Shown piece by piece: positions 11,166 through 14,686 of a stretch of 64,000 nucleotides of DNA (position 1 is its first letter; each line of letters begins with the position of its first letter). Source of the stretch: Actinomycetota bacterium (GTDB lineage Bacteria > Actinomycetota > Thermoleophilia > Solirubrobacterales > Solirubrobacteraceae); assembly GCA_018268595.1 (NCBI GenBank), contig JAFDWH010000009.1, positions 124,001-188,000 on the forward strand, read 5' to 3'. The notes beneath the pieces are model-generated. The model made no database searches and was not told the origin of the DNA. It saw only the letters and a list, made by a program, of their open reading frames with translations. The position numbers were made by a program, and so were the translations under genes.

Positions 11166-12908
11166 TCAGGTGATCTGGTAGAGCGGCCCGTCGCCGCCCT
11201 CGGGCGTCGTGAGGCGCCCGCCCTTCGCAGTGATCGCGCCGCACTGCACGCAGTTCGTGTAGTTGACGATCACGTCGACGGGCCCGGTCTCCGGCGCGTC
11301 CTCGGGGATCTCGTACACGCCCGCCGGACACATCCACTTCCACGTCTCGGCGATCTCGCGCGGGACGTGCTTCTGCACGCGGATGTGGTTCGGCGCGTCG
11401 TCGCGCGTCGCGTTGCCGGTGATGAAGACCGACGAGAGCTTGTCGAACGTGTATCTGCCGTCCGGTCTCGGATAGCGCTTGTGCGTGTTGCCGATGAACA
11501 TCGGCTTCTCGTCGTTGCGATGCCACGCGAGGCGCCCCGGTGGCAGCTTGCCTCTCGTCGCGATCGCGAGGTTGACGAGCGGGCCGCCCTTGAGGAAGCC
11601 CTTCTGGAACGGCTGGCGCAGGTTGCGCACCTCGTACAGCTCTCTGCCGGTGACCGAGTCCTCGATCATGTACTCGTAGGACTCGAACGACGTCTCGCCG
11701 TTCTTCAGGCCTCTGTAGATCGCCTCGGCGGCCAGCTTTCCGGAGTTGATGCAGTGGTGGACGCCCTTGAGCGCCGCCGTGTCGACCATGCCGCCGGCGT
11801 CGCCGACGATCACCGCGCCCGGCATCGAGAGCTTCGGCATCGACCAGTAGCCGCCGCCCGGCAGCGCCTTCGCGCCCCACGCGACGCGCTCGCCGCCGTC
11901 GAGGATCTTTCTCACGAGCGGGTGCAGCTTGAACGCCTGCAGCATGTCGTGCGCGGAGGTCGTCGCGTCCGCGTACTCGAGCCCGATCACGAAGCCGAGC
12001 GACACCAGGTGATCGCCGGTTCTCTCGTCCTTCATCGGGTAGAGCCACGTGCCGCCGACCTGGCCGTACTTGCCGGGGATCTTCGCCGGCCACGGACCGA
12101 CGGTGTGGATCAAGCGGTCGAGCGGCTTGGGGACCTTCCAGACCTCCTTGACGCCGAGCTCCCACACCTGCGGCTCGCGGCCGTCGGCGAGGTCGAACTC
12201 GCGGATCGCGGCACCGGTGAGGTGGCCCCAGCAGCCCTCGGCCAGCACGACGCACTTCGCCTTGATGTCGGTGCCGGGCTCGAAGTTGCCGAGCGGCTCG
12301 CCGTCCTTGCCGCGGCCCTTGTCGCCGGAGCGCACGCCGACGACGCGCCCCTCCTCGACGATCAACTGCGTCGCCGAGGTCTCGGTCAGCACGTAGGCGC
12401 CGCCCTCCTCCGCCTGGCGCTGCTGGTAGCGCGCCAGTGAAGACACCGAGATTATCTCGTTGCCGTGGTTCTTGAACGGCGGCGGCGTCGGGATTCGCAG
12501 CGCGAGCTTGGAGGTCGGCGTCATGTAGACGGCCTCCTTCGTGACCTCACCGAAGGCGAAGCCCTCCTTGCGCCAGTCCTCCCGCGTCAGCTCCGGGAAC
12601 AGCTCCTGCAGCGGGCCGGGGCGCATGACCGCCCCGGACAGGTTGTGGCCGCCGCAGGTCTTCGCCTTCTCGATGACCGCCACCGGCACCTCGCCGAGGC
12701 GCTCCATCAGGTCGGGGTCGTCCGCCAGCAACTGGAGCAGGCGGTTCGCGCACGCGAGGCCGGCGGTGCCGCCCCCCACGATCGCGACGCCGACCTCGAT
12801 CAGCTCGTCCTCAGGGTCGAGGCCGCGCTTGACGAACTCCTTCGGCGAGTCGACCGGCGGCGGATACGCCGCCGGGACGACCTTGCCGTTTCCGTTACTG
12901 GCGGACAT
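11166..12908 (-). CDS. fixC: Electron transfer flavoprotein:quinone oxidoreductase
   Basis: This 580-residue flavoprotein passes electrons from reduced ETF to the membrane quinone pool during acyl-CoA oxidation. The FAD-binding [14 protein letters not shown] is near residue 46, the [10 protein letters not shown] segment near 85, and the second FAD contact [14 protein letters not shown] is near 368-381. The C-terminal iron-sulfur domain starts CPAGVYE (Cys527) and contains NCVQCGAI with Cys553 and Cys556. The fourth ligand position, 559, is Ile instead of Cys. It is last in the etfB-etfA-ETFQO operon, 6 bp after etfA. Confidence 0.92.
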
Positions 12909-12914
12909 GGCGTT

Positions 12915-13892
12915 CTACGCCCCCTTCTTGGCCTTCACGGCCTCGGTGAGCTTCGGCAGGATCTTGTTGAGGTCGCCGACGATGCCGAGGTCGGAGAACT
13001 CGAAGATCGGGGCGTTCGCGTCCTTGTTGATCGCCACGATGTTCTCCGAGGCCTGCATGCCGACCTTGTGCTGGATCGCGCCGGAGATGCCCGCCGCGAG
13101 GTACAGCTTCGGCGCGACGGTCTTGCCCGTCTGGCCGATCTGCGCCGCGTAGGGGTACCAGCCGGCGTCGACGACCGCGCGCGTGGCGGCGACGGCGCCG
13201 CCGAACGCGCCGGCGAGGTCCTCGCAGAGCTGGAAGCCCTCGGCCTTGCCGAGGCCGCGGCCGCCGGCGACGAGGATGTCGGCGTCCTCGATGTTCACGT
13301 CGGCGCCGCGCTGCTCGCCGCGCTGGACCATCGTCGCCTGGTTCGACCACGGCGAGTACTCGACCGCGACGTCGACGACCTCGGCCGCCCCGCCGCCGGT
13401 CTCCTTGACCTCGAACGCGTTGATGCGGCCGATGATGATCCCGAGGTCCCCGCGGTACTTGGAGACCGAGATCTGCGAGTCGCCGAGAATCGGGCGCTCG
13501 GCGACGAGCTTGCCGCCCTCGACGTTGACGCCGGTGACCTCCATCGTCACGCCCGCCTGCTTGCGCGCGGCGAGGCCGGCGCCGATCTCGAAGCCGAGCA
13601 GGCCGCCGCCGAACAGGGCGTACGAATGGCCGTTGTCGTCGATCACCTTCGCCATCACGTCGATGACCGGCTGCGCGAGGCCCTCGGCGCCCTCTGCCTT
13701 GTAGACCTTCTTCGCGCCGTAGGAGCCGAGCGTGGCGCAGAGGTCGTTCGTGAGGTCGGCGCCGCCGACGACGACCGCGTCGCACTCGACGCCCAGCTCG
13801 CCGGCGAGCTTCGCGCCCTCGGACACGGCGCCGAGCGAGTTCTTGTTGAAGGCGCCCTCGTAGTGGAGGACGTAGACCAGGATGTTGCCCAT
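12915..13892 (-). CDS. etfA: Electron transfer flavoprotein alpha subunit
   Basis: This 325-residue subunit holds the FAD of ETF. The C-terminal FAD domain shows [15 protein letters not shown] near residue 207, [21 protein letters not shown] near 250, and [11 protein letters not shown] just after it. The ATG at 13892 lies two bases after the etfB stop, which fixes the start although the frame continues upstream. In mycobacteria the pair is fixB/fixA next to the MGLP genes, as discussed elsewhere. Confidence 0.95.
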
Positions 13893-13894
13893 GA

Positions 13895-14686
13895 TCAGAT
13901 CAACTTCCTCTCGTCGAGCCAGGCGACGATCTGCTCGACCGTCTCGTTCGTGTCCTCGTCCTCGATGATCTTGCCCGCGGCCTTGGCCGGCGGGGCCTTG
14001 AACTCGCCGCAGTCGACGCGCGAGCCGTCGGCGCCGACGAGCGAGCCGTCGATGCCGACGTCGCCCGACGCCTTCGTGTCGAGCGGCTTTTTCTTCGCGC
14101 CCATGATCGCCTTCAAGGACGGATAGCGGGGCTCGTTGATCGCGTCGCCGACCGAGATCACGGCCGGGAGCTGGACCTGGACGGTGTCGTAGCCGTACTC
14201 GGCCTGGCGCTCGCAGCGCAGCGCGCCGCCGTCGACGTCCATCTTGATGACCTGCGTCAGCGAGGGCATCTTGAGGTGGTCCGCCACGACCGCGCCGATC
14301 GTGTAGCACTCGCCGTCGTCCGACTGCTGGCCCAGCAGGACGAGGTCCGGCTGCTCCGACTCGAGCACCTTCGCGAGCGCGTAGCCGGTCGCGGCGACGT
14401 CGGAGCCGGCGAGCGCGGCGTCGGTCAGATGCACGGAGCGGTCGGCGCCGAGCGAGACGGCCTTGTGGAGCGCGCGCACGGCGGACTCCGGCCCCATCGT
14501 CACGGCGACGATCTCCTCGACGGGGACTGCCCCGCCCTCCTTGATCTGCATCGCCGCCTCGATGGCGTGCGTGTCATACGGGTTGAGGTTCTTCTCCCCG
14601 CTGCGGTCCATTCGCCCCGTCGATGGGTCGATGCGCTTCTCGACGGCGGCGTCCGGCACCTCTTTGACCAGGACGCAAATCTTCAA
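13895..14686 (-). CDS. etfB: Electron transfer flavoprotein beta subunit
   Basis: This 263-residue subunit binds AMP and docks acyl-CoA dehydrogenases. It begins MKICVLVKEVPD, with LNPYDTHAIEAA near 34 and LLGQQSDDGE near 120. The Arg-Tyr-Pro-Ser-Leu-Lys recognition-loop stretch is near 187. The start codon is TTG, supported by a perfect AGGAGG eight bases upstream. It heads the ETF operon behind a palindromic operator. It presumably accepts electrons from the acyl-CoA dehydrogenase encoded 1.5 kb further on. Confidence 0.95.
   Translation of the reverse strand: MKICVLVKEVPDAAVEKRIDPSTGRMDRSGEKNLNPYDTHAIEAAMQIKEGGAVPVEEIVAVTMGPESAVRALHKAVSLGADRSVHLTDAALAGSDVAATGYALAKVLESEQPDLVLLGQQSDDGECYTIGAVVADHLKMPSLTQVIKMDVDGGALRCERQAEYGYDTVQVQLPAVISVGDAINEPRYPSLKAIMGAKKKPLDTKASGDVGIDGSLVGADGSRVDCGEFKAPPAKAAGKIIEDEDTNETVEQIVAWLDERKLI

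What the first reader, a model, noticed from the sequence alone, without database searches (positions are those of the whole stretch)
11166..11330. ETF:quinone oxidoreductase lacks the fourth iron-sulfur cysteine
Canonical enzymes hold a 4Fe-4S cluster with one distant Cys and a C-x2-C-x2-C motif. Here Cys527, Cys553 and Cys556 are present but position 559 is Ile (NCVQCGAI). The codon ATC is clear in the sequence. The cluster may be 3Fe-4S, use another ligand, or be absent, which would change how electrons reach quinone.
Basis: partly seen in the sequence, partly recalled or inferred. Interest (0 to 1): 0.55.

Follow-up and report, generated by a model that had tools for sequence, protein, structure and literature searches.

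The report
Respiratory enzyme lacking one iron-sulfur cysteine
A soil bacterium's enzyme that passes electrons from fat and amino-acid breakdown to the respiratory chain has lost one of the four cysteines that normally hold its iron-sulfur cluster, and many relatives in one bacterial class share the change in a very strictly conserved form, so it looks like a working redesign rather than an error.

Summary
Confirmed. The ETF-QO gene (11166-12908, minus, 580 aa) encodes C527, C553 and C556, but Ile559 (ATC, 11232-11234) where the family has its fourth cluster cysteine. Thr558 is Ala and the next loop is four residues shorter.

It is not a sequencing error. Of 151 distinct class sequences, 144 have CGAI with ATC, ATT or ATA codons; 7 (family f8) keep CKTC. 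The motif's DNA pattern occurs in 301 of 399 class genomes, and in 0 of 358 sampled genomes from the rest of the phylum. The variants form one branch (support 92).

The site is under strong selection. Residues 552-575 are the variant's most conserved 24-residue stretch, and the three remaining cysteines are present in 75 of 75 aligned variants. No other cysteine is conserved. etfBA lies upstream in the window's relatives, but not in families f10 and f11. This genome has one ETF, one ETF-QO and no EtfD that I recognised.

Best reading: a working ETF:menaquinone oxidoreductase with a three-cysteine cluster, most likely [3Fe-4S]. Cluster type is inferred, not shown. [4Fe-4S] with water or Thr560 as ligand is the main rival; loss of the cluster is unlikely.

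The parts
11166..12908 (-). ETF:quinone oxidoreductase gene (580 aa), three-cysteine variant
   Evidence: ORF, Pfam PF21162 and PF05187, 2gmh homology, AF2 model matches 2gmh_A with Z 42.7, rmsd 2.4 over 525 residues
11169..11459 (-). C-terminal ferredoxin-like domain (Fer4_ETF_QO; residues 484-580, PF05187 match 484-578)
   Evidence: Pfam
11328..11330 (-). Cys527 codon, remote cluster ligand in CPAGVY
   Evidence: sequence; Cys in 150 of 151 distinct sequences, 75/75 variants in the alignment
11313..11315 (-). Tyr532 codon, conserved Tyr of CPAGVY
   Evidence: 75/75 variants and 6/6 canonical
11250..11252 (-). Cys553 codon, cluster ligand
   Evidence: 75/75 variants
11241..11243 (-). Cys556 codon, cluster ligand
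   Evidence: 75/75 variants
11235..11237 (-). Ala558 codon; Thr in the canonical CKTC motif
   Evidence: 75/75 variants Ala, 6/6 canonical Thr
11232..11234 (-). Ile559 codon (ATC) at the position of the fourth cluster cysteine
   Evidence: 75/75 variants Ile, 6/6 canonical Cys
11229..11231 (-). Thr560 codon, Thr/Asn/Ser in variants; a possible oxygen ligand
   Evidence: T70 N4 S1 of 75
12915..13892 (-). etfA, electron transfer flavoprotein alpha (325 aa from MGNILVYV)
   Evidence: Pfam PF00766, PF01012; start located
13895..14686 (-). etfB, electron transfer flavoprotein beta (263 aa)
   Evidence: Pfam PF01012

Best explanation
The gene encodes a working ETF:menaquinone oxidoreductase, the last gene of an etfB-etfA-etfQO cluster. 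Like porcine ETF-QO it should take electrons from reduced ETF at a C-terminal iron-sulfur cluster, pass them to FAD and reduce a membrane quinone, here menaquinone. The cluster is held by only three cysteines (527, 553, 556). Ile559 takes the place of the fourth, so the most likely native cofactor is a cubane-type [3Fe-4S] cluster whose empty corner is closed by the isoleucine side chain, as in other quinone-linked enzymes that use [3Fe-4S]. Shown here: sequence, conservation, one branch on the tree, gene cluster in the window's relatives, fold, no other conserved cysteine, no second route recognised in this genome. Inferred: cluster presence (about 0.9), [3Fe-4S] as its native form (about 0.55), electron order and potentials.
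For: Ile559 in 144 distinct variants with three synonymous codons. C527/C553/C556 in 75/75 variants of the alignment, and residues 552-575 rank first of all 24-residue windows for conservation (mean entropy 0.18 against 1.20 over 14-580). No other cysteine is conserved: the next best is residue 53, 46 of 75. Full-length fold match to 2gmh_A, Z 42.7 over model 32-580 (Foldseek TM 0.82). etfB-etfA-etfQO in that order on one strand in 57 of 57 variant loci with 2 kb upstream, all and by title nearly all Solirubrobacterales; etfA directly upstream in 30 of 30 further f1 and 2 of 2 f7 loci with 1.2-2 kb. Own genome: one PF05187 match, one ETF alpha/beta pair, and its CCG-domain proteins do not read as EtfD. 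menB over cut-off, no UbiG over cut-off; Conexibacter woesei makes MK-7(H4) (PMC3035278, one passage). Hydrophobic residues at the vacant ligand position of native [3Fe-4S] sites in fumarate and nitrate reductases are recalled, from no call.
Against: No spectroscopy or activity was found for any member. The AF2 model carries no cofactor, no coordinates were available, and its last 20 residues are less certain (76 and 65). Thr560 is always Thr/Asn/Ser and Asp503 is 75/75, so an oxygen ligand is possible. The etfA link fails in families f10 (0 of 5) and f11 (0 of 5; three have etfA downstream on the other strand). Family f8 of the same class has menaquinone-route genes yet keeps the four-cysteine form, so menaquinone use alone does not explain the change. 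One MAG (L038) has Gly at C527.
Confidence: 0.55

Rival explanations
1. The cluster is a [4Fe-4S] cubane with three cysteines and a non-cysteine fourth ligand: water/hydroxide as in aconitase, or a side chain such as Thr560 or Asp503.
For: Residue 560 is T70 N4 S1 and D503 is 75/75 in variants while the canonical residues differ. Three-cysteine [4Fe-4S] clusters with water, SAM, Asp or unknown fourth ligands are known (PMC11138216, passages).
Against: A strictly conserved Ile, not a polar residue, occupies the ligand position (75/75). No geometry could be measured.
Confidence: 0.33
2. The Fe-S cluster is lost or replaced (a [2Fe-2S], a disulfide or a zinc site), and ETF reduces FAD directly or through another route.
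For: One MAG (L038) also lacks C527. Residues around the site (Q555, G557, A558, G563, G564) differ from the canonical ones throughout.
Against: Three cysteines kept in 75/75 variants, and the strongest conservation in the protein is at this site. No second ETF:quinone route was recognised in this genome. In the mitochondrial enzyme the cluster is the acceptor for ETF (Swanson 2008; title seen in a reference list; content recalled).
Confidence: 0.1
3. Sequencing error or a broken gene in one genome.
For: None found.
Against: 144 distinct sequences with ATC/ATT/ATA at the site; pattern in 301 of 399 class genomes; intact frame.
Confidence: 0.01

Closest known systems
[quoted passage not shown]
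   Same: Full-length homology (E 1.7e-83), same fold (Z 42.7), ubiquinone-binding and Fe-S domains
   Different: Three instead of four cluster cysteines, Ala for Thr in the CKTC motif, loop after it four residues shorter; probable acceptor menaquinone
Canonical four-cysteine ETF-QO of family f8 in the same class (L109, L191-L197)
   Same: Same domain order, 36-39% identity, etfA and etfB homologues in the 6 loci with enough flank
   Different: Keeps NC.HCKTCD and has three further cysteines upstream of CPAGVY, aligned beside window residues 513, 515 and 523; separate branch
FixX / EtfX ferredoxin-like subunit (7koe_D; FixX-like loci L202-L211)
   Same: Homologous Fe-S domain; ECGTC/ECGAC resembles QCGAI
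   Different: Separate small protein; keeps the fourth cysteine in 10 of 10 loci read
EtfD of mycobacteria (PMC13083937, passages)
   Same: Same task: ETF to menaquinone
   Different: Not homologous; a membrane protein with CCG domains, a linear [3Fe-4S] and a noncubane [4Fe-4S] cluster; none recognised in this genome
Succinate dehydrogenase/fumarate reductase [3Fe-4S] centre
   Same: Suggested analogue: native [3Fe-4S] in a quinone-linked flavoenzyme (PMC8097209, passages; residue detail recalled)
   Different: Unrelated protein; resemblance is functional only

Membership tests
Canonical four-cysteine [4Fe-4S] ETF-QO | FAD/ubiquinone-binding body of the ETF-QO family | tested here: met
   PF21162 71.2 bits over cut-off 27.7; 2gmh_A E 1.7e-83
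Canonical four-cysteine [4Fe-4S] ETF-QO | C-terminal Fer4_ETF_QO domain | tested here: met
   PF05187 51.1 bits over cut-off 24
Canonical four-cysteine [4Fe-4S] ETF-QO | Four cluster cysteines (CP...C-x2-C-x2-C) | tested here: not met
   Fourth position is Ile559; Ile in 144 of 151 distinct class sequences
Canonical four-cysteine [4Fe-4S] ETF-QO | Contains a [4Fe-4S] cluster | not testable with these tools
   Needs EPR/Moessbauer
Canonical four-cysteine [4Fe-4S] ETF-QO | Reduces quinone with electrons from ETF | not testable with these tools
   Only gene linkage was tested: etfBA upstream in 57 of 57 loci with 2 kb; etfA upstream in 32 of 42 with 1.2-2 kb, 0 of 10 in f10 and f11
[3Fe-4S] electron-transfer site | Three conserved cysteines with a non-ligand residue at the fourth position | tested here: met
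   C527, C553, C556 75/75 and I559 75/75
[3Fe-4S] electron-transfer site | [3Fe-4S] cofactor | not testable with these tools
   No spectroscopy
EtfD | CCG domains | tested here: not met
   Pfam hits of the protein at E 0.001 contain no CCG domain

The most novel reading that the evidence does not exclude
In much of the class Thermoleophilia (the class as the record titles suggest it) the link between ETF and the respiratory chain is an ETF:menaquinone oxidoreductase with a native [3Fe-4S] cluster. It arose once by Cys-to-Ile and Thr-to-Ala changes and a shortened loop, and was then fixed across nine family groups. This would be an independent use of a three-iron cluster in a quinone-reducing flavoenzyme, and evolution's own version of a ligand-removal experiment.
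Probability: 0.5. Interest if true: 0.65.

Novelty: new variant of a known kind. Interest (0 to 1): 0.5.

Why it matters
As I recall it, the four cysteines of ETF-QO are treated as a fixed feature of the family. Here a large bacterial lineage dropped one and then conserved the new site more strictly than any other stretch of the protein. It gives a natural comparison (three-cysteine and four-cysteine enzymes in organisms of one class that carry menaquinone-route genes) for asking what the cluster must be and how its potential is set between ETF and menaquinone. It also warns against annotating these proteins as [4Fe-4S] enzymes by homology alone.

Tried and rejected
Sequencing error or pseudogene: rejected. 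A substitute cysteine elsewhere in the chain: rejected; the next most frequent cysteine column has 46 of 75. A cysteine supplied by ETF: among columns with Cys in over 30% of variant loci, none is both universal and specific (variant loci, then loci without CGAI, which mix canonical, truncated and FixC-like: EtfA 223, 58 of 97 and 1 of 12; EtfB 4, 49 of 57 and 3 of 5; EtfB 127, 79 of 89 and 3 of 8; EtfB 158, 60 of 89 and 3 of 11; EtfB 226, 43 of 89 and 3 of 11), so this was not pursued. Menaquinone use as sole cause: rejected, because the 6 f8 genomes tested carry futalosine-route genes and keep four cysteines. A second ETF:quinone route (EtfD) in this genome: the CCG matches are a 635-aa frame with two CCG domains beside a ferredoxin-type ORF, read as complex-II-like, and an FAD-oxidase/GlpC-like protein; these names are my reading, not a library result.

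Led nowhere: viral collection scans found nothing. tblastn against plasmids matched 441 and 163 records, all under 60% identity; of eight regions fetched, five ETF-QOs and one FixX were read to the motif and keep the fourth cysteine, L217 looked frameshifted and L221 was not read. The AF2 model of the canonical f8 protein was poor (mean pLDDT 72.7, nearly all of residues 465-563 under 50), so no structural comparison was made. No model coordinates were in the Python box, so ligand distances could not be measured. Phyla outside Actinomycetota were not sampled with whole genomes: the one genome-contig scan returned proteins at 52-87% identity, by title nearly all Solirubrobacterales or other actinobacteria. 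Of the 98 class genomes without the pattern I did not check each; they include f6, f8, f9 and incomplete genomes. The reversed control pattern matched one class genome that I saw (G198). The ten literature searches listed no paper that I recognised as describing a three-cysteine ETF-QO; the library holds open-licence papers only, and I read listings and passages, no whole paper. A paper on molecular markers of Thermoleophilia (PMC6544083, passages) does not contain the word flavoprotein in its main text.

Rows dropped: 8 of 198 loci gave no motif (L085, L095, L099, L108 end before it; L069 ends just after it and reads CVQCGAIT; L100 changes frame; L137 and L198 are FixC-like). Duplicates of one genome under two ids were merged by their last 200 residues. 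The tree (quick search, SH-aLRT only) used 57 of 75 variants of A1, 6 canonical, 5 of 6 proteobacterial proteins and 3 FixC-like ones, with the last 100 residues of each ETF-QO cut off.

Full report
What is there. The window carries, on the minus strand, etfB (13895-14686), etfA (12915-13892) and an ETF:quinone oxidoreductase gene (11166-12908, 580 aa) in tight order. The oxidoreductase has the family's quinone-binding and Fe-S domains (PF21162 71.2 bits, PF05187 51.1 bits) and aligns with porcine ETF-QO, 2gmh, over residues 28-577 (E 1.7e-83). Its C-terminus reads C527-PAGVY ... N-C553-VQ-C556-GA-I559-TAKGG. The porcine sequence at the same place is NCVHCKTCDIKDP, so Ile559 stands where the fourth cluster cysteine should be, Ala558 where Thr stands, and the following loop is four residues shorter. 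The codon is ATC at 11232-11234.

How widespread. A search with the protein found a match at E 1e-60 in 227 of 299 genomes of the class, 7 of them of family f8. I read loci from that search, from a scan of named genome contigs, from a phylum search and from chosen genomes of other families. Of 198 loci, 190 show the motif: 182 have CGAI and 8 have CKTC. After merging identical C-termini, 144 of 151 have Ile and 7 have Cys. The Ile codon is ATC in 133, ATT in 10 and ATA in 1, so the amino acid is kept while the codon drifts. Families f1, f2, f3, f4, f5, f7, f10, f11 and f12 carry the variant in the loci read that reach the motif in frame; family f8 carries the canonical form. A DNA pattern for the variant motif occurs in 301 of 399 class genomes. 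In a phylum sample it occurs in 28 of 38 class genomes and in 0 of 358 others. PF05187 itself was found in 42 of 396 phylum genomes, 7 of them outside the class. Those 7 and three of the six f9 matches were read, and all 10 FixX-like proteins keep the fourth cysteine. Record titles of the named loci are mostly Solirubrobacterales, Solirubrobacteraceae, Conexibacter and Patulibacter, so the class is probably Thermoleophilia; the genomes behind the counts are unnamed.

One branch. On a tree built without the last 100 residues, all 57 variants used form one side of a branch (SH-aLRT 92), apart from the 6 canonical proteins of the same class and 5 proteobacterial ETF-QOs, with FixC-like proteins as outgroup. 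The five proteobacterial proteins all have HCKTC. The support is moderate, the search was a quick one and the outgroup branch is long, so one loss is the simplest reading, not a proof.

Is the site still in use? In the alignment of 75 variants and 6 canonical proteins, C527, C553 and C556 are invariant in both sets, and Ile559 and Ala558 are invariant in variants. Among all 24-residue windows of the variant protein, 552-575 is the most conserved (mean entropy 0.18, against 1.20 for residues 14-580). No other column holds a cysteine in more than 46 of 75 variants. One MAG (L038) has Gly in place of C527. A site that had merely lost its cluster would not be expected to be the best conserved part of the protein.

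Genome context. In 57 of 57 variant loci with at least 2 kb upstream, etfB, etfA and the gene follow one another on one strand; these loci all come and are by title nearly all Solirubrobacterales. Of 42 further loci with 1.2-2 kb upstream, etfA lies directly upstream in 32: f1 30 of 30, f7 2 of 2, f10 0 of 5, f11 0 of 5. In three of the five f11 loci etfA lies downstream on the other strand. The link to ETF genes is therefore firm in the window's own relatives but not universal in variants. The window's genome has one PF05187 match, one ETF alpha/beta pair and three CCG-domain matches, none of which reads as EtfD. So this enzyme is probably the only route from ETF to the quinone pool here. The genome has menB over the curated cut-off, no MqnA-type match and no UbiG over cut-off. 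Of 16 genomes chosen (10 with the variant, 6 of f8), 5 have menB over cut-off, the other 11 have the futalosine-route family, and none has UbiG over cut-off. Conexibacter woesei is reported to contain MK-7(H4) (PMC3035278, one passage). The quinone is therefore very probably menaquinone, in variant and canonical lineages alike.

Fold. The AF2 model (pLDDT 90.3, pTM 0.92) matches 2gmh_A with Z 42.7, rmsd 2.4 over 525 residues from 32 to 580 (Foldseek TM 0.82). Confidence falls to 76 and 65 in the last two ten-residue blocks, and no coordinates were available, so no ligand geometry is claimed.

Mechanism. By homology, electrons enter from ETF at the cluster, move to FAD and then to quinone (the order is established knowledge for the mitochondrial enzyme; the primary papers were seen only as references, and their content is recalled). 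Pig ETF has couples of +4 and -50 mV (PMC8097209, passage). With three cysteines the cluster can be [3Fe-4S], or [4Fe-4S] with a water, Thr560 or Asp503 ligand. I prefer [3Fe-4S] because the replacement is a strictly conserved bulky hydrophobic residue, as at the vacant position of native [3Fe-4S] sites in fumarate and nitrate reductases (recalled). Three-cysteine [4Fe-4S] clusters with other fourth ligands are well known too (PMC11138216, passages), which is why the rival keeps a third of the weight. The Thr-to-Ala change at 558 removes a residue that, as I recall, hydrogen-bonds to the cluster and raises its potential in the Rhodobacter enzyme; lowering the potential would suit menaquinone, but family f8 keeps this Thr with menaquinone-route genes, so this is only a lead.

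Verdict. It is a conserved, lineage-wide variant of a known enzyme. The cluster's composition is the open question, and it can be tested with ordinary expression and EPR.

Noticed in passing
L109, L191-L197 (family f8): The canonical ETF-QOs of family f8 carry three further cysteines upstream of CPAGVY, 6 of 6 in the alignment and 0 of 75 variants, seven in all around the cluster; possibly the remnant of a second cluster as in two-cluster FixX/EtfX.
   Followed up: partly
L179, L181, L182 (family f11) and f10 loci: The variant ETF-QO gene is not preceded by etfA here; in three f11 loci etfA lies downstream on the opposite strand, so the gene order was rearranged within the variant lineage.
   Followed up: partly
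L038 (Solirubrobacterales MAG, groundwater): Has Gly in place of the remote ligand Cys527 (WMGPAGVY) with an otherwise normal variant motif; sequencing error or a further ligand loss.
   Followed up: no
L199 (own genome, contig C26): A 635-aa frame with two CCG domains overlaps a ferredoxin-type ORF with two full four-cysteine motifs; looks like a CCG-containing complex-II-like system without the usual three-iron motif.
   Followed up: no
L050, L064, L068, L070, L086, L108: Contigs titled Chlamydiae bacterium or Bifidobacterium breve encode ETF-QO 76-82% identical to the window's protein; the record titles look misassigned.
   Followed up: no
L100 (Thermoleophilaceae MAG): The ETF-QO match spans 2440 nt of the locus and leaves the frame after residue 313; gene broken or misassembled in this MAG.
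   Followed up: no
families f6, f8, f9 and genus g88 of f7: Several lineages of the class lack the variant motif; three f9 genomes read have FixX-like genes instead, suggesting replacement of the ETF-to-quinone route.
   Followed up: partly
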